Under the pieces are notes generated by a model. The model made no database searches. It saw nothing but the letters and a program-made list of their open reading frames with translations, and was not told the origin of the DNA. The position numbers and the translations under genes were made by a program. This document shows, piece after piece, positions 2,899 to 41,276 of a stretch of 64,000 nucleotides of DNA. Position 1 is the first letter of the stretch, and every line of letters starts with the position of its first letter. The stretch is from Pleodorina starrii (Eukaryota > Chlorophyta > Chlorophyceae > Chlamydomonadales > Volvocaceae), in assembly GCA_030267565.1 (NCBI GenBank), contig BRXU01000003.1:8008501-8072500 (forward strand), written 5' to 3'.

Positions 2899-3919
2899 AT
2901 GGCTCGATCGGAGAGCCTCGCTGCTGCGGTTGCCTTGCTCGTTGCTCTGTAAGTAGTAACAATAATGCTAATTTGTGCGCCTTGATCGGTGATCGGCGCA
3001 GTGCAGCTATCCTTGCTTCCAATCTCGCCATTTGTCAAATTTTGGCAGTAGACATTGCAGCCCGCATTTACCTGGTAGAGCTGCCCTCACATTCTATCCT
3101 GCGGTCGTCCGTTGGATGGCGTTATATCTTCCATGTTTGAACGCCGTTCGTTTGGCCAACCGTAGAACGCATGCGTGTGTTTGATCTTTTCTCGTGACAA
3201 AATAGACAAACCCTTAAATATCGTCAGAGGTAAAGTACTTCGTTTGGCTTACTTAATCGCGCCGCAGGGCTGCCGCCGGAGCCTACGCCCAGACGCCGCC
3301 GCCGCCGCCGTCGAACGTCATCCTGCTGCCGACAATCAACACGCCGCCGCGTCCACCTCGTTCACCGGCCCCGCCAAGGCCGCCACCGCCGTCGCGCCAG
3401 CCGCCTTCGCCCCCGAATCCGCCTTCCCCTCGGCCACCCTCCCCCTCCCCACCGTCTCCCTCCCCACCGTCTCCCTCCCCGCCTTCACCCCGGCCGCCCT
3501 CCCCACTACCGCCCTCCCCCTCCCCACCTTCTCCCTCCCCGCCCTCCCCCTCTCCACCGTCTCCCTCCCCGCCCTCCCCCTCTCCACCGTCTCCCTCCCC
3601 GCCCTCACCCCCGCCGCCCTCCCCACCACCGCCATCCCCTCCCCCGCCGCCGCCTCCACCGCCACCTCCCCCGCCGCCACCATCCCCTCCGCCGCCATCC
3701 CCTCCACCGCCGACTCCTCCGCCGCCGCCTCCCCCGCCGCCCTCCCCACCACCGCCATCCCCTCCCCCGCCGCCACCGCCCTCCCCACTACCGCCATCCC
3801 CTCCCCCGCCGCCACCGCCCTCTCCACTGCCGCCCTCCCCCCCCTCCCCACCCTCGCCGCCCACTCCCGTGGTACCTGACAAAAGAAAGAAAGAAAGAAA
3901 GTATTACGCTGGACCGTAA
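2899..3919 (+). pseudogene. Pherophorin-like 5' piece: signal peptide plus Pro-rich rod, truncated
   Basis: Exon 1 (2899-2948) encodes a signal peptide beginning MARSESLAAAVALLVAL and ends in a GTAAGT donor in phase 2, exactly as in the intact pherophorin gene at 17531. The acceptor GCCGCAG at 3261-3267 opens exon 2, which runs in frame through [18 protein letters not shown] and then about 180 residues of (SP)n, PPSPSPPSP and PPPPSPPPP repeats. After 3866 the frame enters an AAAG microsatellite and stops at 3917-3919 (TAA). There is no Cys-rich N-terminal domain between signal peptide and rod, and no C-terminal domain follows directly. The matching C-terminal exons reappear at 6324. This is probably one pherophorin gene broken by rearrangement; a short secreted Hyp-rich protein is the alternative. 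The Gly-rich open frames on the opposite strand are shadows. Confidence 0.65.
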
Positions 3920-4053
3920 GCCCTTGCGTGGGTTAAGGGAACAGACTGATGCCTCATCGGCGGGTACAGCCCATTACCGCGGTGACCGCCTGTTTGACTA
4001 AGATGGGTTGCTTCTCCCACCCACTCAGTGTCTGGACTCCGTCTCACTCGGAT

Positions 4054-4120
4054 CACATCTGGGTACCCGCGAGATACCCAGATGTCTCGCGGGTACCCGA
4101 GACATCTGGGTATCTCGGGT
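4054..4120. repeat. Interlocking palindromes built from a GGGTAcCCGAGA-type word
   Basis: Three perfect inverted repeats overlap. ACCCGCGAGA at 4065-4074 pairs with 4085-4094. TACCCAGATGTCTCG at 4075-4089 pairs with 4098-4112 across an 8-base loop. ACCCGAGA at 4095-4102 pairs with 4113-4120. The strand can fold in alternative ways. No coding role is apparent. Confidence 0.85.
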
Positions 4121-4933
4121 TTGGCCGACCTCCAGGCAAGAAGGTTGGGCGGTAAGGACTACGAACTACCCAAACGCGTGATGTCCAACGCGTTACGAAA
4201 CGGCGCGATCACTGGCAAACATGATATAAAGAGAGACAAGGCAATAGGTGCCGTTACAATGAAATACCTCTTTGGCGGTGCGGCTTTGTAGCCTGCAGGG
4301 CAAGAAAGTGAGCTGTCCGAGTCTACGTAACCAACTACACGGTGCCCTGCGATGTTCGCTTGGGCCCGCCTGCACGCGGTCGGCTTGTTTACCGTTCCGC
4401 TGATTGATGATAACGGCAAGATACTCACTGCTTAGATAACTATTGATTGATATAACCAGTCCTTAGTTGTGTAAAGCCTCTGCGCAGCTACGCATAGCAG
4501 TGCCTGGAGGTGACGGCTATGCCGCCACCCCGGCATAATAACGACATCGCCATAGGGCCCGGTCTGATGCCGGAACAGCCTTATCACCAGCGAAACCATG
4601 ATCCTGTCTTAGTACGACCTGACTCCACAATGCTGGCCAATTATCCTGCCAAGCTTGTTCCTTGTTCCGAATACGCCTGAAGCACGGTGCAACACCTCGC
4701 AGCCGGCCGGAACGTGGCGCGAATGTATGCCACGTAAAATACGTATAAACAGACGGAGATAACACAACTTAGCGCAGATTCGCGTAATTACGCTGCACGC
4801 AACGGCTTGCTCCCCGCCGAAATGTCAAGTGCTACTAACGGCCAACGGCCTCCGACAGAATCAACTACTGCTAACCAGCTACATTAACTGTTCCGTGACG
4901 CCAATTCCTCAGCGACGCTGATTTACCCTGACA

Positions 4934-5036
4934 GCGGCCGCACTTGGTTCCCCCCCAGCCGCAGGCGTCGTCGCCCTTCAGAGCCGCTCAGCAGCTCAGG
5001 CGCCCTCGCGGCTGGGGGGGAACCAAGTGCGGCCGC
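4934..5036. repeat. Perfect 29-bp inverted repeat with 45-base loop
   Basis: 4934-4962 (GCGGCCGCACTTGGTTCC, then CCCCCAGCCGC) is the exact reverse complement of 5008-5036. The loop is 4963-5007. The arms carry a NotI-like GCGGCCGC at both ends. The right arm runs straight into the GCC-rich tract. Confidence 0.9.
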
Positions 5037-5340
5037 CACCTGCGCCGCCGCCACCTGCACCTCGCCGCCGCCGCCATCTGCGCCGTCGTGCACCGCCGCC
5101 GCCGCAGCCACCTGCACCTCCCCGCCGCCGCCACCTACGCCTCACCGTCACGCGCCGCCGCCACCTGCACCTCGCCGCCGCCGCTCCAGCCTTCATAGCA
5201 GCGCGGATCCTGCACCTTGCCGTCACGCACTGCCCGTGCCTACAGCGCCTCCATACGGAAATCCACCAACACCTCCCTCGCCGGCAAGTCCCATCGCCAC
5301 CGCCGCGCACTCGGCCCAACACCAACATCTTCACACACGT
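5037..5340. repeat. GCC/CAC-rich trinucleotide tract
   Basis: Irregular repeats of CCGCCGCCACCTGCAC with periods in multiples of three keep all three forward frames open (Pro-, Ala/Thr- or Arg/His-rich). One frame gives PPPAPPPPAP and later PPYGNPPTPPSPASP, so a remnant of a Hyp-rich coding region is possible. No Cys-rich pherophorin domain is attached and no frame is clearly favoured. Confidence 0.5.
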
Positions 5341-5989
5341 GTAAGGCTCAATGGGGTGCTGATGGTAGCCGCTATCAAGCCTTTACGCTGCCGCTCCACA
5401 GCTCACCCGGGCCAGGGTTGCAATTAAAAAAAAGGGGGAATGGGGAAGGGTATAGTAGTAGGCTGGGGGGGGGAGCATGGGTGCTCGGAGTCAGCAGGCT
5501 TATTGATGGACATGGGACCTGCTCTGCCCACGCGTTTTGTCTTACGGTTTCGTGCAGTATTGCAAATTTAGGCCGCGGCCATGCGCATGGGACCGTGTCG
5601 CTTTGTGTACCGAGCGCCTGAAGCGCTAGCGAAAGGAGTTGCGCGTTATGAGCGCCGTTAGTCCGCTGTTTTGTAATGTGGTAGCACGGAGATGTGTGTG
5701 GATGCAGTGGATGCTTGGTGGTACCCCTTGTTTGTGTCTCAATCGTGTTAACACTTGTGAACTTGCCGTAGCGCCCGTTGCCTGAATAGGCTGCCAGTTG
5801 GCCTTATGGGATGTCAGGAAGTCTGTGGTGGATGATTGTAGGATGCCGGTTGTCAGTAGTCCGCCGTGTCTCGCCATGTCAATTAGCGTTAGGGTGGCAT
5901 CTGTCGTGGGTACGGAGGATATTGCGTGTGGCGCCCCGTTGTCATCTCTCACCCGTTGTACCAACATGCTTTGAGCTGGGGGGGGTCTG

Positions 5990-6053
5990 CGAAGGCCGGG
6001 ATCGAACTCGTGACCTCTCGGTCACCAATTCAGTGCCCTAACTCTCAGGCACT
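5990..6053 (-). repeat. tRNA-like sequence, possible SINE head
   Basis: On the minus strand a TGCCTGAGAGTTAGGGCA box (6034-6051) resembles a class-II tRNA A box, and GAGTTCGATCC (5999-6009) resembles a B box, about 25 bases apart. The T-arm stem does not pair cleanly and the anticodon loop is not canonical, so this is not called a functional tRNA. A decayed tRNA-derived SINE running toward lower coordinates is the best reading. No 3' tail was identified. Confidence 0.35.
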
Positions 6054-6323
6054 TCCTAGGGGATTACCTAACAACTTTACCTTCCCCTACTGCAAGTAAG
6101 ACTGGGTTCGTTCGAGGGATAAACGAACCATCACCTAATCACGGCTGGTGTGAAATGGCGGCGGCTAATTACCGATCCTGTGTGTTGGTTGTAGCGCGTG
6201 CGAATCCATCCATCCAACAACCAACCTAGTCTGAGTCCATACAACGCTCGCATTATAGCGCGGCGACTTCTTTAAGCTTTACGTGAGTTCCACGTGCATG
6301 ATGATGATGCGCCCCCACGACAG

Positions 6324-8580
6324 GTGCAACAAAATCGTTGGCGTGACTCCCTACGGGATCGCCCCCACCTACACCACCTTCCCCGGCAGCCGGGCCACCA
6401 CGACGCTCTACTGCTTCACCATCGAGTCAGTTCCCGTCACAGCTGTAGATGTAAGCAAGGCTGGGCATGAGTTATGAAGGTCCTCGGTGGCTGCTTGATT
6501 GCTGGCTGCTGTGTGCTGGGTTAGCTGAGTCCCGTCTTGCAGGAAGGGGTCCGGAAAGGTTGCTGCGATGCTGTGCACGGCTAGCGGGGGGCCTCCAATG
6601 AGCGGCAAGCTCTGCTCTCGCTCTGACATTGCCACCAGCCTGATCAACGGCATCCGCCGCTACTGTCCGGGCTTGCCAATAAATGAGCCCAGCCCTGCCC
6701 TGCCCAGCCCAGCCCAGCCCATCCATTCATACGGCCGTCGGTTCCTACATCGCCTTGTTTGCGGTGCGTGTGAACACGTCATTATGCACGCACGTTGTCG
6801 TACGTGCAGGCCAGCTGTGGAGCCGTGGATACGCTGAGCAAAATCGAGTTCTACGCAGGTGAGCCCTTAGTAGCGACTGCTGCTGCTGCATGTCCTCCCG
6901 TAGGGAACTGCCTTCATTCCCACTTATATAGGATCTACAGAACCCATACATCGACGTCAAGTACCGTGCAAGCCCCTTGATTAACCCCTGTATGTTGCCT
7001 GCCTAAACAGCGACCACGCACTGTACGTCACCTGCCTCGCTCGCTTTGGCCGGTTTGACCGCTCTTGCTTGCTGCAGATCGGAACTACAATCAGTCAGTC
7101 AAGGGGTTGGTCCTCATTCCAAACAACGGTGGCCCCGATGTGACTCTCGCACGGTCACTCGGACCGGCTGGCACCAACACGCTTAAAGGTGCGCGGCGGC
7201 GTGAGATTGGAGGCGCGGTATGCATGGCAGCAGGGTGCTCTAGCTAAAAAAGCGGTACAACACAGCAAGGTATCCGTACTTACGTGCTACTCCAACCGTT
7301 TCGGTTGCTTGGGTAACGGGACGGGACCAGGGTGGCTATCTTATTTTGCCGAGTATCTGCGGCCAGAGATACTCCTGGCTCAGAAGCCCTGAGAGTATCT
7401 GTCAGGAATCTGTCTAGGAGGGGATTTTCCCGGCTAAACACGGTCCCGGGAGATATCATGCCCACCTGTGAGGCCGAATTATCTAAACCTTCAGCTTTTT
7501 TCACGGCAAAAGTATCTTCAGATTTCCAAAATTTTCTCCCGAATATATATCCATCTCTTAAGATAGCCACCCTGGACGAGACGGCGGCAGTGCTGGCAGG
7601 GCTGCAGACGACTGCTGACATACAGGCATACATGCATGTGTCATCACCGGTGTCACACATGCTACTACCGTTCCCTCAGGGTATTGTTGCGCTGACACGG
7701 TCCCAGACACGGACGGGGCCCAGACACGGACGGGGAAAGCAACCTCATAGTCAAAAATGCGGTCACCGCGGTAGTGTGCTGTACCCGCCGAAGAGGCATC
7801 AGTCTGCTCCCTTAATACACGCTAGGGCTTACGGTCCAGCCAGCGTAACCTTTCCTTTCCTTTCCTTGTCCATCCGTCCATTCATGCGTCGCCGCCTTCG
7901 AACTACCTCGCTCCCGCCCATCATGCATCAGCGACACCCATCGACTGGAACCAGTCCCAAGCCATTGGCAGCAAGGTGTGCGTGGAGCTCTACAACCCAA
8001 TCACTATGGAGGACCTCTGCCTGGGTGGTGGAGGGAGTAACTGGTGAGCAATGTGCCAGCATTATTGTGCCAGGAGGTTCAGTTACGGTATAGCCGATCC
8101 ATCCGTTGTATGTGGCGGAACGGGGGGGGGGGAGCTTGCATGTCTGCTATCTAGAGGGCCGGCTGGAAGAAACGCTGGACGCGGCAGCCGCGGGTGGGTA
8201 ACGTGGTATAGTTCATGATCTGACAGTTTGGAGTCCCCCATGCACTGGACGGATGGGGCATCGATCGGCGGCGCAGTGGTGAATGAAGGCACTCCTTCGC
8301 TGCGAACAAAGGCCCTCCTGCGCATCCGATGGGATGTATATAGTCTATATATATCGGCTTTGCACATCTAGGCCACAACACACTCACACAACACACTCGC
8401 TCCGGCGACGACCCCCATGCCGCGCACGCCAACGTACCCACGCGCCGCAGCACCCTCGTCATCTTCAACAACAACAGCCGGTGCTGCCCTCTCTATCAAG
8501 TGGTCCCGGCTGCGGCGGCGGGCCTTGCACCGCCGGTCCGCCATCGGCTACTGATCAACGCAAAACCTGCAGAGGTTTAA
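6324..8580 (+). pseudogene. Pherophorin C-terminal domain exons, 5' half missing
   Basis: Five exons match exons 4-8 of the intact pherophorins in order, phase and nearly in size: 6324-6450, 6810-6858, 7078-7188, 7932-8043 and 8451-8580 (stop TAA 8578-8580). They encode the second half of the pherophorin C-terminal domain: CNKIVGVTPYGIAPTYTTFP, YCFTIESVP, ASCGAVDTLSKIEFYA, YNQSVKGLVLIP, ATPIDWNQSQAIGSKVCVEL, EDLCLG and RCCPLYQ. All splice sites are canonical GT-AG and no frame break is seen inside the exons. The C-terminus is about 25 residues longer than in the other two genes. It probably belongs to the locus starting at 2899, but the central exon that should join them is absent, so the locus is most likely dead. 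A functional gene with an unseen central exon cannot be excluded. Confidence 0.7.
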
Positions 8581-9067
8581 GGGACGGATCAGGGTTCTAG
8601 GATTTCAGGGTTTGGACCGGCGCCCGATTGGCCCGCCGGCAGCAGCAAGCATGGATTGCATTGTATGTGTCATGCGTGGTTGATTGGGCGGGCGCCAGCT
8701 GCTCGCGTTGTTTGGTCGTTTATCTTGGCTACGTAGTCATGATGACCAAGCAAGCAAGTAAGGATGCATGGGTGGATGTGTGGCAGGATTTCCCGGTGGC
8801 TGGTGCAATCAAAGCGTAGCGACAGTTATCATGGTGGGTCTCGTGCGTGCCTGAGAATGGCAGCGTTGTCGAGCGAGGAATGGTGAGGATGTAGTGCAGT
8901 CGAATGGTGCAGCGATGCCGTGTTACGACAAGCGCAGGAGCTGGAAAGGTGGCCACCTTCCCATGCATGCGGGGTGCTGCATTGTGTGCTCAGTGTACGT
9001 ATGTCACGGAGCCGGGACATAAGTGCAGTCCGTGCGTTCCGTTCTGAAACCTCTGCTAGCGAATTTC
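8581..9067. other. Spacer between pherophorin 3' piece and SDR element
   Basis: No gene, RNA or repeat stands out in this 490-base stretch. Confidence 0.5.
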
Positions 9068-9288
9068 CTGAAGGTTTTCTGAGTGCAACGCTAGAAAACC
9101 AAGGTTTTCTGTGAACTCAGAGGAGTTGTGCCCTCATAAGGGCGTTGGTACGGCACATGGTGCCAGTTAAGGTGTCCGCGAAGGCGTGGAGGAGTGATTT
9201 TCGGGCTTTGTAGCTACATAGGGTGGTTGCTGCGAGGCTGTGGGCATTAAGGCCTTAGCGATAGCTTTCGCGGTAGCTGGCCCTCACC
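9068..9288 (+). repeat. Split direct repeat A1
   Basis: 221-bp left terminus of the element, starting CTGAAGGTTTTCTGAG. It contains the inverted words AAGGTTTTCT and AGAAAACC, and is repeated as A2 at 10595-10815. Confidence 0.85.
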
Positions 9289-9301
9289 ATTAATTTTAAC
9301 A

Positions 9302-10072
9302 ATGGACATTGACCTTGCGTCCGACCAGCTGGGCTTTCTCGTAGAGGAAGCATCGAAGCGTCTTAACGCTCTTTTGGAACATAAAAATGTCAAAGCTGCA
9401 AAGGTGCAACTTGTGACGGATCCGGGAAAAATTTTGACCGGGCAGCTACGCGAGGCTTACGCGCAGTACATGGATGCGGTGCGCGAGCACCAGCAGCTCC
9501 TCCAGTTATTGACACAGCGAATGCTGCTTGAACAGCGGGAGACAGTGGAGCCGGCCCCAAAGAGGCAACGCATGGTCCTGCCGGACTACGATTGCGACTT
9601 CGGCGCCTCAGAGGGCAAAGGGAACAAGTCGCTCATCGGACAGCGGCAGCGTCTGGTTCACTTACACGACGTGTTCGCAGACGTGCAGCTCAAGTGGCGC
9701 GCGGTCGTTGATGCTCCCGCGGCTAACCGGGCGGAGCGCGCGGAGGCGATGGAGGAGGCGGTTCGCAAGACGCAAGAAGTCTTCGAGCAGCAGGCAAAAG
9801 AGCTGGTCATCGCGCACCACCACGGGTGGGATGTCGTGGGCCAGATGCGGGGAACGCCCTACGCGGCCACGGAGGAAGAGCAGAAGGCGCTGAAGAAGGC
9901 CATCAAGGCCGCAGCTGAGAGCCGGAAGGTTGCTAAGCCCCCCGGGAAGGCGCAACCGGCGCAGGTGGCGGCCGCGGCGGGGCCGTCGACGCCGAAGGCT
10001 CCCAAGGGGCCGTGTTACAAGTGCAACGCCATGGGCCACTGGGCCAAGGAGTGCCCGAACCCGCCGAAGTAG
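9302..10072 (+). CDS. Gag-like protein with CCHC zinc knuckle
   Basis: A 256-residue intronless ORF starts 14 bases after the A1 repeat. The N-terminal two thirds is Glu/Lys/Gln/Ala-rich and predicted helical (for example EHQQLLQLLTQRMLLEQRE), consistent with a capsid-like coiled region. A KPPGKAQPAQVAAAAG linker follows. The last ~20 residues hold one zinc knuckle, CYKCNAMGHWAKECP (CX2CX4HX4C), ending NPPK. Retroelement Gag proteins with this knuckle bind the element RNA and package it into particles. There is no pol downstream; the stop is followed immediately by the 70-bp tandem repeat. It is the only ORF of the element and looks undamaged, which suggests selection or recent activity. Confidence 0.8.
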   Translation: MDIDLASDQLGFLVEEASKRLNALLEHKNVKAAKVQLVTDPGKILTGQLREAYAQYMDAVREHQQLLQLLTQRMLLEQRETVEPAPKRQRMVLPDYDCDFGASEGKGNKSLIGQRQRLVHLHDVFADVQLKWRAVVDAPAANRAERAEAMEEAVRKTQEVFEQQAKELVIAHHHGWDVVGQMRGTPYAATEEEQKALKKAIKAAAESRKVAKPPGKAQPAQVAAAAGPSTPKAPKGPCYKCNAMGHWAKECPNPPK

Positions 10073-25323: not shown

Positions 25324-26946
25324 AGGACGCTGAGTCCCCGCAGCGTGACGGGACAAGGCCCGAATCCGCTCAAGTTCGGGTTTCAGGTCAGGAGTGAAGT
25401 TGACTGCAGGCTCCCAGCTGTTGTGCTCAGAAGAGTAACCGGCCCATATGACCAGGTATTCGTGCACGATTCGCTTCCGACGACCTTTGCCAACGCGCCG
25501 GCCGCGGTAGTCCAAAATACGCTCGACCGTGTAGAGGGGCGCTTCGTCCAGCCAATCTACAGGCGGCGGTCCTGCAGGTTCATCAGAAGCCTCAACAGCA
25601 AGGGTGTCGTCAACCGAGGGCTCCGTCCCCGGCTTGCTCCAATAAGGACGCAAAAGCGACACATGAAAAGTGGGGTGAATGCGCAAAGAAGTTGGAAGGA
25701 CTAGCTCTGCCGCGGCCTGCCCGACCATGCGCTTCACAGGGAAAGGACCCACCCAACGCGGAAGCAGCTTTCGCGGACCCTTGGCAAGCTGCCGCAGGTT
25801 CTTAGTGTTCAGAAGCACAAGTTGCCCCTCGCGAAAGGACGCGTCTTGCTTACCGCGGTTGTAGTAGTCAGCCGCACGTTGCTGAGCCCGCTCAAGGCAC
25901 TGCTTGGCGTCCGCAATGCGAGCGGTGTACGACTTGGCAAAGACCTTCGCTGCTGGAACAAGGGCATCGATCTCACGCACGACGGGTGTCGCGGGATGGA
26001 AGCCGTAATTCAGGAAGAAAGGAGACTGTCCCGTGGAACGGTTGACAGCGTTGTTCATTGCGAACTCAGCAGCAGAAAGGTAAGTATCCCACTCCCGGGG
26101 GCAGTTGCCAGCATAGGCACGGAGCATATCCCCCAAGGTGCGGTTCATGCGCTCAGTCTGCCCGTCAGTCTGAGGATGGTAGGCAGTGGAAAGGTCAACC
26201 CTGATGTCCGCAAGAGCGCCAAGGGCTTTCCAGAACTTGCTACCGAACTGAGGCCCGCGATCAGAAATGAGCGATTTGGGAACGCCATGCAAACGCACCA
26301 CATTGTCGTAGAACAGACGAGCAGTCTGCTTCGCAGTGACAGACGTGGTGGTGGGCGCAAGGTGCACCATCTTTGTCAAACGATCAACAAGGACGAGCAC
26401 GGCGTCGTATCCCCCCTCAGTTGTGGGCAAACCGACAACGTAGTCAAGCGAAACACTCTCCCACGGGGCTTCAGGGATAGGCAGGGGCTGCAAAAGACCC
26501 GACTGCTTACCAGAGTGCGGCTTGTTACGCTGGCACGTGTCACAACGCGCCACATAACGGGCGACATCACGGGCCATTCCAGACCACCAGAAGTTGCGAC
26601 GAAGAAGCTCGAGAAGGCGGGTGGTTCCGATGTGGCCCGCAAGCTTGTCCTCATGCAAACGGGAAAGAATATCGGCGCGGAGCAAATCATCGTTAGGAAC
26701 GACAATTTGGCGACGATCCCCGTCCTGACGGAACCAAAGCCCACGCTCACGAGTCAAGTGACTAACGTTCACGGAATCCGCGAACCACGAATCAGATGCA
26801 TAGCCGCGTGCAATGCGTTGCGCAAAACCCGCAGGGGTAACGTCAGCTGCAGCAGACTGGTGACGCGTAACGGCACACAAAATGGCAGCATGCAGAGACG
26901 GGTGGCGGCTAAGTGCAAGTCGAAACGAGCCATGAACTCCAGCCAC
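25324..26946 (-). pseudogene. Gypsy integrase with chromodomain
   Basis: Reading the minus strand, the frame starts at the end of RNase H (ALSRHPSLHAAILCAVTRHQ). It then has the HHCC zinc domain (HEDKLAGHIGTTRLLELLRR then CDTCQRNK), the DDE core (LDYVVGLPTTEGGYDAVLVL, ISDRGPQFGSKFW, HPQTDGQTERMNRT), a GPY/F-like stretch (PRWVGPFPV) and a C-terminal chromodomain (YTVERILDYRG, then YLVIWAGYSSEHNSWEP). This is the domain order of chromoviruses, whose chromodomain steers insertion to marked chromatin. All catalytic residues are present, but the frame is out of register with the RNase H part upstream. Confidence 0.88.
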
Positions 26947-31275: not shown

Positions 31276-31786
31276 CGAGACGTACTGCGTGACCCGCCCA
31301 GTGCGCATTCCAAGACCTGAAGAGCGGCATGGAGGAGAATCCCGGCATCAGAACCCTGTTTCTATAATAAGTCAATGAAATGTAAAGTATGTTTAACATG
31401 CCGGGGCTTTCCATCATGTGTAGCTGCGTCGCGTCTTACGCCAGACGGGATGGCCAGGGGTGCACACTTCGGTAATGTACACGACTCATTGGAAAGTGTG
31501 TGAGTTGCGCTACAATATTTAAGTGCTGATGAGATGTTGCTGAGACACCTGGCGCCGGCAAGTTTCACAACGGCTTGCATCTTCCCCTTGCAAGCGCTGT
31601 TCGCAAGTTGCTCTGAACTGTAAGATATTCAAACGTGCATTAAATCGAGTTTTACCCCAATGAATTGGTGTGAAGTGAAGGAAGTTGGGCATGAAAATTA
31701 CTTGGTACGGAAGCATGAAAATAAGAAAATTGTGGTACGGTACGACTGTCCAAGGCATGAAAATTAGCTTAGATTGGTAGATTGGT

Positions 31787-33281
31787 AGAAACCACGTGCC
31801 CCAAGTACTCCACCTGATTTTGCGCCCAGTGGCACTTAGACCGTTTCGCGAAAAGTTGTTCGCGGCGAAGGACATCAAGCACCAGACGAAGATGGCGAAG
31901 ATGTTCCTCCTTGGTCTTGGAGTAAATAAGGATGTCGTCCAGGTAGCATACGACAAATTTGTCGATGAAAGGCCTGAACATGCGGTCAATAACAGCTTGG
32001 AAGGTAGCAGGAGCGTTAACCAAACCAAAACTGAGGACCGTGTACTCGAAATGACCGAAAGGAGTACGGAAAGCCGTCTTAGGGATGTCAGACTCAGAAA
32101 TGCGAATCTGATTGTAACCCTGCTGCAGGTCAATCGAGGAAAAATAAGACGCGCCCTTAAGCCGGTCAAGCAAGTCGTCGACGCGCGGCAAGGGGTAGCG
32201 ATTCTTAACAGTCACCGAGTTCAGCCCACGGTAATCAATGCACATGCGCAGAGTACCGTCCTTCTTGCCCACGAAAAGAATCGGAGCAGAGTAAGGCGAA
32301 GTGCTAGGTCGAACCATTCCCTTTGCAAGCAAGTCAGTCACCTGCCGTTTTACCTCGTCCAGCTCGAGAGGGCTGAGGCGGTACATCGGACGCGAGACAG
32401 GCTGCGCGCCAGGCACCAAGGGAATCGTGTGGTCGACCGGCCGAACCGGCGGAAGGCCGGGAATCTCCCGAAAAACATCAGAGTATTCCTCCAGAAGGGC
32501 AGAGACGTCAGAGTCCTGCGAGGAATCTTGCGCGACAGCAGCGTTAAGACGAACAGAAGGCCGCACAAGCAAAGCATGGGCACCCTTTCGCAGCAAGCGC
32601 ATCGCGGCCTTGCGGCCGACAGGCTCGGGAGAGGCGTGCGCGCAGAGAGCAGCAGCAGCAAAGTTGACACGCGGAAGGGCATCAACCGCAGGTTCACCCC
32701 CCTGCGAGGCCGGAAGCCACGGCACAACGCAAGCGGAAGGCCCTTTTGAGAGGCGCAACGTGCGCGCCGCGTAATCGAGCGAGGCTGCATGCTCACGAAG
32801 GGTGGAAGAACCCAAAATGAAAGAGGCCGCGTCCGTGAGGGACGGCAGCACGTACGGCTCAACAGAGAACCAAAAAGACCCCAGGGAAACGCGAAGAGAA
32901 ACGCGCCCTAAGATTGACTGCTTGGCCCCATCCGCGAGAGACACATGTGACCACTCACTGGACCGAAGCGGAAGGCCGAGCTGTTGAACGAGCTCCGCGC
33001 TCACGAAGTCGTGGGTTGCGCCGGAATCCACCAAGGCGGGGAAGGCGCGACCTGCGGTGCTCAGAGAAACAAGGGGCAAAGAAGACCCAGACACAGCGAT
33101 GCCAGAAGAAGCTGCAACAAGCACCGAAGTGTACGGCGAAGGCTGCACGGCGGTGTACGGCAGGGGCTCGTCGTACCAAACGTCGACCGAGTACGGGAGG
33201 GCGGCGAGCTCCACCGTACGGCCGGCAAGGTCCACGCCGTTGAACAAGACTGAACCGGAGGGGAACGAATGAACCCGGCGC
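31787..33281 (-). pseudogene. Gypsy aspartic protease and reverse transcriptase
   Basis: The minus-strand frame has an aspartic protease motif ([12 protein letters not shown]). It is followed by the usual linker and RT motifs: [66 protein letters not shown], the catalytic YLDDILIYS and VEYLGHVVS. The frame is intact over ~490 residues but lacks a true start (its first codons are LTR remnant) and is cut off after HVVS by the nested element. Confidence 0.88.
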
Positions 33282-33891
33282 ATACAACAGGAGAGATACA
33301 ACATGTGGGGACCATTGCTGACGATGTCCGTCTGATGTGGTGACGCCCGAGCCAGAGCCCAGCTGCCAGAGCCAGTGCTAGATCCCGGGAATCGTTGAAT
33401 GCGATGTGTCCGTAGTGGGGTGATCCGCGGATGCTCATGCCGTCTTGTTGTTTGGCAGATCCGTGGTTAGGTGAGCGTGTTGGCGACCCGCTGCTGCATC
33501 GTTGGTTGTTTGTGGCTGGGCACTTCTCCAGGTGTTTCCTGCTTGCGTGCAGACTTGGTGTTCACCGTACGTTTGGCATTTTATCTTCGTGTCTCGGCCC
33601 TACCGACAGGACGCTTGGATTGTCGTGCGGTCATGGCTGGAACTGCTTCGCACCTGATTTCATGTGCACCCCTTCATTTCCAGCTTTGCTTTCTGCGTTG
33701 CACGCTGGGGGGGGGGAGTCCGGGGTAGGCACATGGTTCGTTCGTGTGCAGTCATGTGATCCGACAGCTGTCGGATCAGTTTACCGTCACCGACAGTTTA
33801 CCGTCCGTATTTCCTGTTATTGCGGATTTGCGTAGTTTGTTGGTTCTACGTCAGTCTTGGTTGTTCGCTTTCGAGTTCGTAACGTATAGTC

Positions 33892-36800
33892 AGCACCTCC
33901 CGGGACAGGACGCATGCGTCTGCAGTGCGGTGGGTCAGGGCTGCCGCCAAGGCGAACCCCCAGGTTTTTGAGGCTAACAAGACCAACCCCTTGTCGCGTG
34001 CCTTCTTCGCTCGGGGTTTGGGTACGGGCGTTACCGTGTATGAGCCCATTGGCGGCTTGTGCGCGGGGCTCGAGGCTTGCCTTCGCGCGGGGCTCAAGGT
34101 GGATCGGTACCTGTGTTCCGAGTCGGACCCAGCCGCAGTCAGGGTTGTCAACATGCGTCTGGAGCGGCTGAGCGCCGAGTTTCCCAAGCAGTTCCCCCCT
34201 GTCGGATCAGTTTACCGTCACCGGCAGTTTTACCGTCCTATTTCCTGATATTGCGGTTTCGCGTAGTTTGTTTGTTCTACGTCAGTCGAGGTTGTTTGCT
34301 TTCGAGTTCGTAACGTAGTATAGCTCACGTGAAGATCTCGGGGGTAGGATGTCGTACAGTTGTTTCGCGTATTTTAGTCGAGTCTTTGGCTTTTTGCCTT
34401 GTCTCGATTTGCTCTCAGGCAGTCGCCTGTGAGCAACTAGTAGGCCCCTTTCGTTAGGTTATGGACCTGGCCTAGCGGAAGAGACATGTAAGGTCTTTCA
34501 TCGTCACTCTTTTCCCTTGCCTGTGGCCGAGACACTTCCATCGTCCTCGTATTTGCACCACTTGTGCAATACTGAGCATCATGTGGTCAGCCGTTCTGCG
34601 TGGAGCCGACTTCGCCAGCAGCCGGTGGATGATCCTATCAACGTTACGGTGACGCCTCGTCGCGAGTGTGCCGCATTGCCGTTGCGCCATTTATGTATAT
34701 TTGGCGCATGTGAAACAGCTTTACTGGATGCAGCGCATTTACCCAGCAAATCGAGACCAAGTGCTTGGTTCTTATCGAGCATGATGTCGTGATATTATGA
34801 TTTGGTCGCCGCGCCTGACCTTCGGATTGAGCCTTGATTTGTGTATACGCAGTGGATTCGTTTTGGCCCGAGACTGATACTGTCGAGTTCTGCGTCTTGC
34901 CGGCGGGTAGATGCCGCAACTTCTTCGCCAATGCTATATCCCGGGCCACGTTGAAGGGATAGTAACGCCTACCGACAGAGGTGACGCCAGAGCCCGGTAG
35001 CCAGAGCTATATCCCGGGTAGGGGCTAGGCCTGCGTGAAGTGCTGACTGAGGTGACGCGAAGCGGCGTTAGGTTGTCGTGCTGAACCCTGGCAGGAATTA
35101 GGCGTCAGTTGAGGCGGGACCAGATCGCTTATGTTATTGCGTAGTGCGTGGCTGTCCGTCGTGTTCCGCGCCCGCCCAACGTGGGCTGGCTGGGTGACGC
35201 GCAGGTGCTAGATCCCGGGCCACGTGTGGGGACCATTGCTGACGATGTCCGTCTGATGTGGTGACGCCCGAGCCAGAGCCCAGCCGCCAGAGCCAGTGCT
35301 AGATCCCGGGAATCGTTGAATGCGATGTGTCCGTAGTGGGGTGATCCGCGGAGGCGCATGCCGTATTGTTGTTCGGCCGATCCGTGGTTAGGTGAGCGTG
35401 TTGGCGACCCGCCGCTGCATCGTTGGTTGTTTTGGGCTGGGCACTTCTCCAGGTGTTTCCTGCTTGAGTGCAGACTTGGTGTTCGCCGTACGTTTGACAT
35501 TTTATCTTCTTGTCTCGGCCCTACCGACAGGACGCTTGGATTGTCGTGCGGTCATGGCTGGAACTGCTCCGCACCTGATTTCATGTGCACCCCTTCATTT
35601 CCAGCTTTGCTTTCTGCGTTGCACGCTGGGGGGGGAGTCCGGGGTAGGCACATGGTTCGTTCGTGTGCAGTCATGTGATCCGACACCCCTGATGCGTACC
35701 GCCGGGTCTGGCTCGACCTCCCCTTGTCCCTCGCTAACGTTACTGAGCAAGCCCTTCTCTCAGCTGGCGCCTGCGACGGATCCCAGTGGCTCGTCTTCGC
35801 TAGCTGGTGTTGGCATGACGTCGGTAAGGAGGCAGGTTCGCTCGCGCCTGGCGCTTGCGCCACTGACCACGTCGTACGCATAGTGCAGACCTTGCAGTCC
35901 ATTCAGCGCCGCGCTCCTGCATTTATGTTTGTCTGTGAGCAGCCGCGCGCCTCGTGGCGCAATGCGTCGGCTGCACAGCAGCGTGTTTCGGATGCATTTG
36001 GTGAACCGGTGGTTGTTGACGCTGCGCGCTTTGGTTCCCTTGCGCATCGCTTGTCTGCCCACTGGACTAACCTCGCGGCTCCCGAGCTGCTTGCCTTAAC
36101 TACTTCCCTGGTTCGTCCGGAGCATGATCTTTCCCTCCAAAGCATTTTGTCGCCCGGGCGCACGGTCAAACCCGCGCGCATCCCGGAGGCGCAGGGGCTG
36201 TTTCCCTGCAACAAGGTTGGTGAGCCCCTTCGCGTTGCGCCGAGCCTTAGTCGCCCGGACCTGCAGTCCTTGTTTGATCTCGTGCATGATCCACTTGATC
36301 CGGATAACGGGACTCTCACCATCACGGAGTCCGAGTGTGCCATGGGCTACCAGGCTGGGGACACGGAGGCCCCTGATGTCACTGACGCACAGCGCCGCGT
36401 CCTGCTGGGACTCGCTCCTGACGCCATGTCTACGGCTGGCATTTTGGCCATGTGCCGCGTTCTCTCGGACGTGTCTTTGCATGAGGTGGCAGCATTTGTG
36501 TCTGACGTAACCCCACAAGCGGCGCCTGAGCCGGTTCGTGGACTTGCGTACCCTCTTTTCCCTTCGGAGGATCCCTCCCCGTGGTCCGTAGCCTTCGCAG
36601 CTGCAGCCCACGCTGAGGAGGCTGAGGCCGCGCGCCCGTCTGCTCGCTGGCCGGACATCTGGGACGATGAGGCGTCCATCCACTTCCTTCGCAACGGTAC
36701 CCACCTGCCTAACCTTTCGGTAGAGGAACAGCGTCGCGTCGCGCGCCGGGTGGGGTCGTATACCATGCAGGGAGGCAATTTGTACCGTGTCTTTAACGAT

Positions 36801-39080
36801 GCGAAGTCTCGGCTCGTGCCCAAGCCGCCTGATCGGGTTGAGCTCATTAGGCGCACTCACGAGGAGACGGGTCACTTCGGCATCCGCCGTACGATCGCCC
36901 TTCTCCTCACCCGGCACTGGTGGTACGGCATGTACCGCGACGTATCCAACTTTGTTCGTCATTGTGAGCACTGTGATCGGGTCAACACTTCTTTTGCGGC
37001 CCCGCAGCCCGATCTGCACCCTTTGCCTGTTCAGGGTTTGTTTTACCGGTGAGGGGTAGATTTGTGCGGGCCTTTGCCCGTTACCAAATCGGGGCACACT
37101 TATGTCATGATTTGTGTCGAGCATTTCTCCAAATACGCTGTTCTGGTACCTCTGCCCGATAAGGAGGCGGGGCACACCGCTTTTGCATATCTGCACCACA
37201 TTTTGGGGCGGTATGGGGCCTCAGCTGAGGTTTGCACGGACGGTGGGAGCGAGTGGAAGGGTCCTTTCGCGCAACTGCTCCTTGATTCGCTAATCGACCA
37301 CCGCCAGACTTCACCCAACCACCCTCAAGCAAATGGCTTAGCAGAACGCGTCGTGCAGACGTGCAAGCGCGCGCTACGCCGCATGGCTAGGCAGCGTGCC
37401 GAGGGCCGGGACTGGGACGAGCTGCTGCCGTACGTCATGCTGGGCTACAACTGCTCGACCCACAAGTCCACTGGTTTCAGTCCCTACCTAATCCTGCACG
37501 GTGTGGAGCCAACCATTCCGCCTGCCATCAAACCAAGGTTTGACGTTCCGGTTTCGTTTGATGACGGGGAGTTAGCTGCGGCGTCAATTTTGACGCGTGC
37601 GGACGCTATGCGCCACCGGATGGCCATTGCTGGGGAGAACTTGCTGATAGCGCAGCACCGGGATACTCTGCGCTATGCTGCGCTGCGTGGGGGCGGGTAC
37701 CATCCCAAGCTGCGTGAGTTTGACGTCGGGGACTACGTGTTTTATCGCAACACTAGCTCCCGCACCACGCTTGACCCGCCTGCCCAACCAACCATCTTGC
37801 GTGTCATTGAGGTGCGCCCCAGTGGCGTGCTGGTTTTGGAGGGTCACTGCGGTCAGACCCTGAAGTCGCACGTGAAGGACTGTGCGCCTTGCCATCTGCC
37901 CATCCGTGATGAAGTGGTTGACCCGCGCGTCGCACGCCCGTCTGCCACTTTGTCCTGTGAGGTGTGCCGCTCCCCCAAAGGGGAGGAGTGGATGCTGCTC
38001 TGTGATAGCTGCGGTACGGGCTGGCACACGTATTGCATGAAGCCGGCCCTGAAGCAAATTCCCGAGGGCACGTGGGTGTGCCCCAACTGCACAAGCAAGG
38101 GCGTTACGCCCGAAAGCGTGGATGCACGTCCCATCGACAGGCCCCGTGAGCCTGGTGCGTCTAAGATGCCCCCTGCCAAGTCGGCTTCCAAGCCGGTGCC
38201 CCCTCAGTACTGGTCGGAACTTCAGGGCGCGAAGGTCGTTCGCCAGGACCACGGTGCTCAAAGTGTGGCTGCGGCTAAGAGTGGCGTCGCAACCTATGCT
38301 GGTCGCCAAGGGCGCCGGCACCTCTTCGAGGTGTTGTATGATGATGGTGAGCTGGAGCTTGTGGAACCCACGCGCCTGAGGACTATGCTGGCGCCAAAGG
38401 TCGCTCGCCCCGTGCGGGCAAGCCGTGCGGCTGCGGTGACCGCTCAGCCGGAGACCTGGAAGCTTGGAGCTGGAGGAGATGTGGCATGTGCGCTGATGGC
38501 TGCGATGCCGGGTGAGCACCCTCCGGCTAAGGTGGCTCTTCTCTCTCGTGTTGTGGGTTCTGCGGCGTTCGATACCCCGCCGGTGCCGATTCAGCACGTC
38601 CAAGCGTTGACGGAGTACGTGGAGCTGGGTATGGTTCGGGATGCGCTTCTCCCGTGGGGTGCGGACCCCGCGGTTCGATCGGTGCTGGTCAGCAAGGGGA
38701 TTCGGGTTTCCAAAGGTAAGTTGTCAGATGCGCGCGAGCCGCTCGCGCCAGGGTTCTACGAGGCGGCGAAAAAGCAGTTGTCGTCGGTAGAGTCGGTGTT
38801 CCTGTCGGTTACGGGTGCGCCGCTGGATCTTGCAATTCCGGCGGCGCTGAAGGTGGCCCAGAGCTTCGTGGTAGCGCGGGTTCCGATGTCGTATGTCTCG
38901 GGTGCGGATGAGGTTCGCATGCGCTGGTTGAAGTCGTTGCAGAGGCAGGATAGGTTGTTGATGTTTAGGTGCCCGTTCGAGGCCGGTCAGGAGCTGTTTA
39001 TGTGGCTGGTGGTTTTCACGTCGCCCGCCATTCGGCGGTTGGTGGTCAAGCAGAGCGGTTTCGTGGAGGACATCGCATAA
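33892..39080 (+). pseudogene. C5-cytosine methyltransferase-like / integrase / PHD fusion protein
   Basis: The frame runs 33892-34199, is interrupted by an inserted element (34200-35685 plus 4-bp duplication), and resumes in register at 35690 to the stop at 39078-39080, about 1,230 codons in all. Domains in order: motif I of C5-MTases (VYEPIGGLCAG, then VDRYLCSESD, 34036-34130). Motif-IV-like FASWCWHDVG near 35799, with Cys kept but the usual Pro-Cys-Gln altered. Motif-VI-like FVCEQP near 35927. Motif-VIII-like VVDAARFGSLAHRL near 36015, then HWTNL. Next an integrase HHCC finger (HEETGHFGIRR then CEHCDRVN), a DDE core (GVDLCGPLP, CTDGGSEWKGPF, HPQANGLAERVV) and a GPY/F-like stretch. Then a PHD finger (CEVCRSP, LLCDSCGTGWHTYC, WVCPNC; 37957-38095), a YDDGELELV segment and an unknown C-terminal domain. 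An in-frame TGA at 37050-37052 replaces the Trp expected in FYRWGVD. No in-frame ATG precedes motif I, so the N-terminus is lost or spliced. Confidence 0.75.
34200..35685. mobile_element. Non-autonomous Ginger-like element, copy 2 (1,486 bp)
   Basis: A perfect 10-bp TIR (TGTCGGATCA / TGATCCGACA) is flanked by CCCC at 34196-34199 and 35686-35689. Removing the element and one CCCC rejoins the host frame exactly (FP then PDAYRRVWLDLP). It shares its left 118 bp and right ~60 bp with the larger element it sits in, so it looks like an internal-deletion or replacement derivative of that family. It encodes nothing recognisable. A solo LTR was considered (TG...CA ends), but the 10-bp TIR and terminal sharing with an RT-less element argue for a DNA transposon. 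Confidence 0.75.
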
Positions 39081-39196
39081 GCGGTGCCGTCGTTCTCAAA
39101 TAATTCAGCGTTTTTCGTCCATTGTAGTCCTACCCGCTGGGGGGGGAACTGGTCACTAGGCACATGTCTGGTCTTTTGTGCAGCCAGCTGTTCCGA

Positions 39197-41276
39197 CAGC
39201 TGACAGAGCGTTTGGGTGTCATCGACGAATTGCCGTCAAACGGTTAATTAACGGCAAGAACTGTTTTTGTCTGTTTGCTTATTAGAAGAACTTGATTTCG
39301 GTGCAGTCGTACTTGCATGACTGCTCGCCAGTCTGACTGGTGTGATCGCCCGTTCGCGGTCACTTGGTTACGGATCTTTGCGAGTTGTGTGTCGCACGCG
39401 CCGCTGTTGGGCGCGTTATGGCGTAAATGTTGTGATCTATTTGTTGTTAGTAAGACGTATCGCATCGCTGTGTGAGCGTTGGTGGTAGGAACACCGGGGC
39501 CCGTGTCCGGCGTTCCGTAATCCGGGGCCTTACGCTTATCCGAGGGTTCCGTGATGAACTGTTGTGCGTATTTAAGGCCGAAAGCGAGCCTGTCTGGTCG
39601 CTTTTCGGCTCTGAACACTTGTAAAGTTCTGAGCTAGGCAACAGGCCCCGCTCCAGCAGGGTACTCCAGCAGCAGGGTATTGGACGTCGACTCTGCCCTA
39701 TCTGCCCAGTCAATGGGGCTGAATCTGAAGCTATGATCAACTGCTGACATGCTACGGAGGTTCTTCGAGAGCCGCTTTCCTCAGGCAAACCGGCTCTGGC
39801 CGCACCAAAAGATGAGACCGCAGCGGTGGGATGGTGGGAAGGAGGCGACGTTAAGTTGGCGAACGGACGGACCCATGAATCAGCCTGGGCCCAGGGATCG
39901 AGGGGCGGGCAGAGGCAGCAGGCCAGCTGGCTTAGGAGGTTGATTAAGAGTTAAAGGGAAGGGCAGGGAACGCGAATCGTAAGCGTATGGTAGGATTCGT
40001 GCTCTGCTCCTCTCGCCATCTATCTGCATCGTGTCCGCGGCTCCACGCCCGGCACTTCAAGTGGAGGGCGATGGCCCTGGACGGCGTACGTACGGGTTGG
40101 CCGTGGCAATGCTTTGCGATGGCAAATTCATCATTAGAGTGGGGGCGGCAGCAGAGCGGCATGCTCGGTGATGCTAATATGGAGCGTGCTGGAGCTGCCC
40201 TACAAAGCAAATTCAAAGTCCTCAGAAGTAGATGGGTTTGCAGGCCGTTATGTGCAGCCCGCCGCTGCAGCAGCCGCGGCTGGCCGCGGCAGCCACGGCG
40301 GCCGAATCATCTCGGCTTCGGTCTGCAAGGCGCACGCAGCGCGATAACTTCGTGAATAATTGCTGGGTGTTCAAACTTCTGATATAAGTAGGGCAGGGCC
40401 CCGGTGGTGCGAGGTCGCACTGGTCGGTGGTCGCACGCAGAGCGGCGAGTGTTTCCCGTCAACCAGACAACCGTAATGTTCTCACAGTTTGAGGTGCGGC
40501 CTTGCGTACAACGTTTTTAGTTTTGTAGCTTATAGATATGGCTTCTTGTGCGATCATATCGCAGTTTTCACCGATACGTGGACACAAGCCGCCAGCCACA
40601 CCTGCAGTAATAGGGTGTTTGCTTCTCGCTTGCTACCTTGAGAGAGCCGTAGATAGCTTGGTTACTTCGGAGTATTTACTCATTTTATTAACTGGTGTGT
40701 AGTAATGACTTCCGACATAATCACTCTGGCCGACGGTGGAAATTGGCTGGAACCCGCGGAAGGTACGCCTTTCATTTCACGCACGCTTCCTGACGCGGCA
40801 ATGTGCAGCATTTTATCTTCAAAAACATTATGCGTTCAGGGCATCGATGACTAAACAAATCGGTTTCGGATGTTTACGAATGAGGGGCACAGGGGACGCA
40901 AGGGCAATGGAATGGCATGCCCTTTAAATCCAAGAAAAAAGCATTTTCATGTAAATTTTATTCTCCTATGGCTGCCGTCACTTCCGAGTGTGTGGCGAAT
41001 GCTCGCTCGCCTGCTCGACATACTCGCCCACCGGCCCACTAAATTACGGTTCCGGCATCATGGGGCGTGAGAGGGTGCACACTAGTTGCCTGATACACAT
41101 CTAACTCATGTTATGATAGGTTTATTCATGCGGCCGGTCTTCGACATGCATGCCAACGACGGTGACCGCGCCCGCCCGTTTAATGCAAAGTACGGCAGGA
41201 TAGGCCAACCAAGGCTTGTGTACATAAAGTCAGGATACAGGCTCTCCGAGACCGCAAAATCTTTTATGCATGGAAG
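39197..41276. other. Intergenic region
   Basis: About 2.1 kb without a supported gene. A small inverted repeat TTGCCGT...ACGGCAA occurs at about 39230-39255, and a GC-rich imperfect palindrome (GCAGCAGCCGCGGCTGGCC) near 40270. The promoter of the pherophorin gene at 41277 should lie at the right end. Confidence 0.5.

What the first reader, a model, noticed from the sequence alone, without database searches (positions are those of the whole stretch)
33769..39196. RT-less transposon with a DNA-methyltransferase-like domain fused to a Gypsy-type integrase and a PHD finger
Seen: one frame encodes C5-MTase-like motifs I, IV-like, VI-like and VIII-like, then an HHCC finger, a DDE core, a GPY/F-like stretch and a PHD finger, with no protease, RT or RNase H between MTase and integrase. 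The ends are TGTCGG...CCGACA. Known: Ginger elements are DNA transposons with Gypsy-like integrases, TGTNR ends and 4-bp duplications, and cytosine methyltransferases captured by retrotransposons are known in some eukaryotes. Inferred: this is a Ginger-like element that captured a methyltransferase, perhaps to methylate itself or its target, with the PHD finger reading histone marks. I am not aware of this exact combination being described.
Basis: partly seen in the sequence, partly recalled or inferred. Interest (0 to 1): 0.92.

Follow-up and report, generated by a model that had tools for sequence, protein, structure and literature searches.

The report
Broken copy of algal methyltransferase-carrying retrotransposon
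The stretch is a truncated and interrupted copy of a full retrotransposon of the green alga Pleodorina starrii that carries a methyltransferase domain which looks catalytically dead yet is kept by selection, and the way intact relatives sit in the genome suggests that they insert from DNA copies whose ends were first joined together.

Summary
The MTase-like, HHCC/DDE and PHD domains are real, but the element is not RT-less. Intact copies in the same genome (Pleodorina starrii) have one 3050-3052-residue frame; the one scanned has RT and RNase H upstream of the MTase domain. The window copy starts only at 33886, holds a nested 1.49-kb element (34200-35685) and an in-frame stop (37050). The MTase domain is Dnmt3-related but lacks intact catalytic motifs in all five Pleodorina families read. 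In three of four families tested it is under purifying selection (pN/pS 0.12-0.17). Of 181 relatives, 178 keep the motifs (sample biased to live ones). Intact copies have split repeats, A-coding-B-GC-A-B, with 4-bp target duplications (17 of 18 testable insertions exact). The B-GC-A junction is fixed; the A|B joint varies between copies and twice holds captured inverted cDNA. Most likely the DDE integrase cuts the internal junction of end-joined cDNA. Closest known: KnitGypsy-Dnmt3 of Klebsormidium (2018), Gypsy domains with DIRS-like repeats. New here: a dead but selected Dnmt3 domain, and insertion-level evidence for integration from joined-end cDNA.

The parts
33304..33885 (+). 3' part of another, non-autonomous element (X): internal sequence and B1 (ends GATCCGACA at 33766), GC (33767-33768), first 117 nt of its repeat A2 (33769-33885).
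   Evidence: Contiguous 96% match to an X copy elsewhere (L048 4262-3683)
33886..34199 (+). N-terminal part of the Dnmt3-like domain of the family-1 retrotransposon; 5' breakpoint at 33886
   Evidence: 96-100% to intact copies; homology to PF00145 polyproteins
34200..35685 (+). Nested X element in A-internal-B form, TGTCGGATC...GATCCGACA, flanked by the 4-bp duplication CCCC (34196-34199 and 35686-35689)
   Evidence: X copies elsewhere
35686..36500 (+). Rest of the Dnmt3-like domain; motif IV reads WCWHD, motif VI reads CEQP
36831..36989 (+). Integrase H2C2 zinc-binding domain
   Evidence: PF17921, E 4.2e-17
37050..37052 (+). In-frame stop that breaks this copy; intact copies exist
37062..37325 (+). 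Integrase catalytic core (rve)
   Evidence: PF00665, E 4.4e-6, below gathering score
37956..38090 (+). PHD finger
   Evidence: PF00628, E 5.7e-11
39139..39146 (+). G-run just before B1, polypurine-tract-like
   Evidence: Sequence
39148..39198 (+).
39199..39200 (+). GC spacer of the B-GC-A junction
39201..39650 (+). Start of repeat A2 (starts TGACAG), about 450 of about 700 nt, then similarity ends

Best explanation
The feature is a truncated, interrupted copy of a Ty3/Gypsy-type retrotransposon of Pleodorina starrii. Its full polyprotein is gag-like (zinc knuckle), RT, RNase H, Dnmt3-like domain, H2C2/DDE integrase, PHD finger. Shown: the full copies, split terminal repeats A1-coding-B1-GC-A2-B2, 4-bp target duplications, a fixed B-GC-A junction and variable A|B joints. 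Inferred: reverse transcription makes an ordinary cDNA whose LTR is B-GC-A; its ends are joined to each other or to another cDNA (2-LTR circle or concatemer), leaving a variable A|B joint; the integrase cuts not at the cDNA ends but at the internal B-GC-A junction, drops GC and inserts TG...CA ends with a 4-bp stagger. A 1-LTR circle cut at the same site would give the A-internal-B form seen at 34200-35685. In this host the Dnmt3 domain is a pseudoenzyme kept for a non-catalytic role, perhaps chromatin or DNA binding together with the PHD finger (speculative).
For: RT, RNase H, H2C2, rve and PHD in the two halves of one 3050-residue frame. Dnmt3 relationship by relatives and profile. Catalytic motifs not intact in 5 of 5 families read, pN/pS 0.12-0.17 in three families. 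Exact 4-bp duplications in 17 of 18 testable insertions (family 1: 6 of 6; X: 11 of 12). Two bases between B and A in 19 of 19 family-1 B copies that are followed by A (of 28 B rows; 3 of the 19 are one tandem array). Ten different sequences in 13 X A|B joints against 8 of 8 alike at the A1-internal boundary. Inverted cDNA captured at the A|B joint in C13 (9.3 kb) and C20 (5.6 kb), inside duplications GATT and CCAG.
Against: No circle was seen; the joining step is inferred from insertions only. RT template switching could also make variable A|B joints. A-internal-B forms could come from recombination between B1 and B2 after insertion. The family-2 copy read (C37) has the B-GC-A palindrome but no recognisable B2 in the about 3 kb read downstream, and several family-2 loci show head-to-head A copies that the scheme does not explain. 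X copy C36 has only 3 of 4 duplicated bases. The family-4 pair gives pN/pS about 0.42 (15 differences). No structure prediction could be run.
Confidence: 0.72

Rival explanations
1. An RT-less Ginger-like DNA transposon that captured a methyltransferase.
For: The window copy itself has no RT; 4-bp duplications occur in the family.
Against: Copies 96-100% identical have RT and RNase H in the same frame; the two 'ends' are parts of different elements.
Confidence: 0.01
2. The linear cDNA itself ends at A1 and B2 (RT template switching at the A|B joint makes the terminal redundancy), and the integrase acts on ordinary ends; no circle is involved.
For: Joints keep primer-side bases and small deletions, which RT switching could also give.
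Against: Captured inverted cDNA of another family (C13) or of the same family (C20) lies exactly at the joint; the palindromic B-GC-A junction is conserved in register.
Confidence: 0.2
3. The A-internal-B and A-B forms are only products of homologous recombination after insertion (B1 with B2, A1 with A2), as for solo LTRs.
For: All such forms read keep exact duplications, as recombination inside an insertion would.
Against: B is only about 51 nt and often shortened in B2, yet three A-internal-B copies with duplications were met among few sites read. Not decisive, and it does not touch the full form.
Confidence: 0.45
4. The Dnmt3-like domain is a decaying passenger without function.
For: Catalytic motifs lost in different ways in the families; family-4 pair pN/pS about 0.42.
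Against: pN/pS 0.13 in family 1, like its integrase (0.15); 0.12 and 0.17 in families 2 and 3.
Confidence: 0.15

Closest known systems
KnitGypsy-Dnmt3 of Klebsormidium nitens (de Mendoza et al. 2018, PMC5890265; section 9 and passages read)
   Same: Gypsy domains, Dnmt3-related domain in the Pol frame, repeat structure described as that of a DIRS element, purifying selection on the DNMT domain (Ka/Ks < 0.2).
   Different: Reported with conserved key residues in the DNMT; here they are not intact. Chlorophyte host and PHD finger here; the text terms 'PHD', 'target site' and 'circular' have no occurrence there. No direct alignment with it was made.
SymbioDIRS-Dnmt3 (same paper)
   Same: Dnmt3 in a retroelement with A-coding-B-A-B repeats.
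   Different: Tyrosine recombinase instead of a DDE integrase.
PAT/Kangaroo/TOC split-direct-repeat elements (recalled)
   Same: A1-coding-B1-A2-B2 arrangement; circle model of integration.
   Different: Tyrosine recombinase, no target duplication (recalled); here DDE integrase with 4-bp duplications.
Foamy-virus integrase cutting 2-LTR circle junctions (Delelis et al. 2005, PMC1180852; abstract read)
   Same: A DDE integrase of the same broad kind cleaving a palindromic junction of joined cDNA.
   Different: There the palindrome is the LTR-LTR joint; here the fixed site lies inside the repeat and the joint itself is variable.
Ginger DNA transposons (recalled)
   Same: Gypsy-like integrase, short TG...CA type ends, 4-bp duplications.
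   Different: No RT in Ginger; RT and RNase H here.
DNMT3L (recalled)
   Same: Catalytically dead Dnmt3 relative together with a PHD-like reader.
   Different: A host gene, not a retroelement domain.

Membership tests
Ginger transposons | Integrase without reverse transcriptase | tested here: not met
   RVT_1 and RT_RNaseH in the full frame
Ginger transposons | 4-bp target duplication | tested here: met
   17 of 18 testable insertions exact
Ty3/Gypsy LTR retrotransposons | RT, RNase H, then H2C2/rve integrase | tested here: met
   rve is below its gathering score
Ty3/Gypsy LTR retrotransposons | Two simple direct LTRs at the ends | tested here: not met
   A1 at one end, B1-GC-A2-B2 at the other
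Ty3/Gypsy LTR retrotransposons | Polypurine tract and tRNA primer site | tested here: inconclusive
   G-run before B1 seen; no tRNA match was sought
DIRS-type retroelements | Tyrosine recombinase | tested here: not met
   No such Pfam match in the polyprotein scanned; other frames of the element were not scanned
DIRS-type retroelements | A-coding-B-A-B repeats | tested here: met
   Three family-1 copies read in full at both ends; further copies by their ends
Gypsy-Dnmt3 elements (KnitGypsy kind) | Dnmt3-related domain inside Gypsy Pol | tested here: met
Gypsy-Dnmt3 elements (KnitGypsy kind) | Common descent with the Klebsormidium element | not tested
   No Klebsormidium sequence was identified among the hits
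Active C5 cytosine methyltransferases | Motif IV Pro-Cys and motif VI Glu-Asn | tested here: not met
   Not intact in 5 of 5 Pleodorina families; family 5 has a Cys at the place but no Glu-Asn. 178 of 181 relatives keep Cys and Glu-Asn
Active C5 cytosine methyltransferases | Methyl transfer to DNA | not testable with these tools
   Needs an assay

The most novel reading that the evidence does not exclude
A family of RT-made retroelements whose normal way into the genome is the cutting of end-joined cDNA (2-LTR or 1-LTR circles, or concatemers) by a DDE integrase at an internal, often palindromic attachment site, B-GC-A. In retroviruses such circles are usually seen as dead ends (recalled). In Pleodorina this goes with a DNMT3L-like pseudo-methyltransferase and a PHD finger.
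Probability: 0.6. Interest if true: 0.8.

Novelty: new variant of a known kind. Interest (0 to 1): 0.6.

Why it matters
Whether cDNA with joined ends can be a true substrate of DDE integrases is an old question. Here each insertion seems to keep a record: a fixed internal cut site and a freshly made joint. That makes the question testable by sequencing circular DNA of a harmless alga. The dead but selected Dnmt3 domain asks what a captured methyltransferase does for a retroelement other than methylate DNA.

Tried and rejected
Pfam on the window pieces gave no methylase match, so the MTase claim at first looked unsupported; relatives and a profile settled it. PF00145 in the whole genome gave 0 matches at E 0.001; that search goes exon by exon, so it does not show that the host lacks a DNMT. 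An integrase tree of 13 rows could not tell one loss of the motifs from several: families 1, 2 and P0007 form a clade (100/100), families 3-5 are unresolved. Two X sites fetched as possible A-internal-B forms (C43, C1-) proved to be B1 followed by GC and A2; their B2 was not fetched, and the 5-base match that the script printed for C1- is an accident of that, so neither is counted. Family-1 copy C43 lacks the start of A1 and was not testable. Family 2 was followed in one copy; its B2 was not found. A PDB search with the C-terminal region of P0008 found nothing. Literature: the ten searches listed no report of a chlorophyte Gypsy-Dnmt3 element or of DDE integration with split repeats; most lists were capped, subscription papers are largely missing, supplements were not open, and Repbase was not at hand.

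Full report
What is in the window. The window lies in a 136-Mb genome of 95 contigs. It is taken to be Pleodorina starrii: the best database protein carries that name, and its contig length, 3094045, equals that of contig C13. 33304-33885 is the 3' part of a non-autonomous element X (internal sequence, B1, GC, first 117 nt of A2), contiguous with an X copy elsewhere. At 33886 it is fused to the interior of a large retrotransposon, family 1. That sequence is interrupted by a second X element (34200-35685) flanked by a CCCC duplication, goes on from 35686 to 39080 with a stop codon at 37050, and continues through a G-run (39139-39146), repeat B1 (to 39198), GC and about 450 nt of repeat A2. TGTCGG at 33769 and CCGACA at 39193-39198 thus belong to different elements.

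The full element. The first MTase piece has 61 matches in the genome, 12 of them (the window's own included) at 93-100% identity. Of six family-1 loci fetched, two have frames of 3052 and 3050 residues (C5, C1). In the C1 copy, scanned in two halves, there are RVT_1 (4.9e-22) and RT_RNaseH (5.4e-30), then H2C2, rve (below its gathering score) and PHD; a zinc knuckle is visible by eye near the N-terminus.

The methyltransferase domain. Pfam sees nothing in the Pleodorina domain, but PF00145 matches 6 of 12 aligned members at E up to 1. Phmmer ties family 1 to PF00145-bearing polyproteins, and the family profile finds DNMT3A (2e-14) and DNMT3B first in the PDB, with DRM-type enzymes and HhaI far weaker. 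It is Dnmt3-related. Relatives read GWPCQD and ENV; family 1 reads GWCWHD and CEQP, families 2-4 have lost both motifs, and family 5 keeps a Cys but not Glu-Asn (one to four loci per family were read). Of 181 proteins given to a profile, 178 keep Cys and Glu-Asn; the three that do not are two rows of family 1 (one my own translation) and P0007, which groups with families 1 and 2. The sample leans to live enzymes, because two of the three searches started from live members. Pooled pN/pS is 0.13 for the domain in family 1 (integrase 0.15, linker 0.17, PHD-to-end 0.36), 0.12 in family 2 (4 copies) and 0.17 in family 3 (3 copies); the one family-4 pair gives about 0.42 on 15 differences, and family 5 was not tested. 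Pairs are not independent. I read it as a pseudoenzyme kept for another task.

The ends. Family-1 copies C5, C1 and C45 have A1 (about 700 nt), coding region, B1 (51 nt), GC, A2 and B2 (shortened in C45), with duplications ACAC, ACCC and CCAA outside TGACAG and TTCCGACA. C4-, C4+ and C20 give GTGA, ATAG and CCAG. X gives AGAA, CCTG, AACG and TTGT in full forms; 3 of 4 bases in C36; GATT in C13, found only after the captured piece was recognised; GCAA, TCTT and GCCT in solo A-B forms; CGCC and TACT and the window's CCCC in A-internal-B forms. That is 17 exact of 18 testable insertions. They were picked from hit lists that are capped, not drawn at random; three further sites could not be tested (family-1 C43; X C43 and C1-).

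The two kinds of junction. B1-GC-A2 is fixed: 19 of 28 family-1 B rows are followed by A, and all 19 leave exactly two bases between (three are one tandem array); the other nine are B2. Where the letters were read the two bases are GC. X shows the same spacing in the seven pairs seen in capped lists. In X and in the family-2 copy the junction is a perfect 20-bp palindrome; in family 1 it is imperfect. The A2|B2 joint is not fixed: 13 X joints show 10 different sequences, with extra bases from beyond the A end (7-8 at most), leftover tract bases or deletions into B; three more B2 copies were dropped because the sequence before B was not recognisable as A. The A1-internal boundary is alike in 8 of 8 X copies fetched, with one substitution in the window. 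Family-1 joints vary too; one keeps 8 bases from beyond the A end and has a shortened B2. In C13 an X element holds 9.3 kb of inverted family-1 sequence at this joint, with six bases of B2 left before the duplication. In C20 the segment 3695-9329 (numbers of the C1 copy) lies inverted at the joint, while the main body jumps from 3738 to 9643.

Mechanism. These facts fit one scheme. Reverse transcription gives a cDNA with LTR = B-GC-A, beginning after the G-run and ending at the primer site. The ends are joined, imprecisely, to each other or to another cDNA. The integrase cuts at an internal B-GC-A site, drops GC and inserts. A 2-LTR circle opened at one such site is A-coding-B-GC-A|B, which is the insertion seen; a 1-LTR circle gives A-coding-B. 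Shown: structures, duplications, joint diversity, captured cDNA. Inferred: joining before integration, and the integrase as the cutter. Alternatives are RT template switching at the joint and, for A-internal-B, recombination between B1 and B2. Foamy-virus integrase was reported to cleave palindromic 2-LTR junctions (PMC1180852, abstract read), which makes the step plausible. Against or unexplained: the family-2 copy lacks a recognisable B2 in the 3 kb read, and family-2 A copies often lie head to head.

What is known. KnitGypsy-Dnmt3 of Klebsormidium already joins Gypsy domains, a Dnmt3 domain in Pol and DIRS-like repeats (PMC5890265; section 9 and passages read). In its main text the terms 'target site', 'circular', 'chlorophyte', 'PHD', 'Volvox' and 'Chlamydomonas' do not occur; its supplements were not seen. 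The elements here are a variant of that kind: chlorophyte host, PHD finger, dead Dnmt3, and junction evidence for the route of integration.

Noticed in passing
G000 whole genome: No PF00145 match at E 0.001 in six frames. Exon-by-exon search may miss a host DNMT; if real, the dead Dnmt3 domains might go with loss of 5mC in the host.
   Followed up: no
31769-33466 (minus strand) and 26173-26469 (minus strand): A different Gypsy element: aspartyl protease and RT frame and an rve match.
   Followed up: no
G000 C12:2920218-2925564 and C42:740928-748959: A copies repeat at regular steps (2598 and about 3971 bases): tandem arrays, on C12 of A-internal-B units.
   Followed up: partly
G000 C22, C6, C4, C9 (family-2 A hits): Pairs of A ends lie head to head some tens to hundreds of bases apart at several family-2 loci; not explained by the scheme.
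   Followed up: no
P0008 about 1130-1290 and the C-terminal end of the family-1 polyprotein: The region after the PHD finger looks by eye like a second, degenerate Rossmann methyltransferase; only a weak D12 methylase hit in P0008 (E 0.069) and none in the PDB.
   Followed up: partly
P0008 940-993: Weak Tudor-like match (PTM_DIR17_Tudor, E 0.014, below cut-off).
   Followed up: no
G000 small contigs such as C56, C65-C69, C80, C81: The best rve matches lie on small contigs in short frames; they may be bacterial contigs in the assembly.
   Followed up: no
L054 3-2219: A 739-residue open frame next to the family-2 copy on C37.
   Followed up: no
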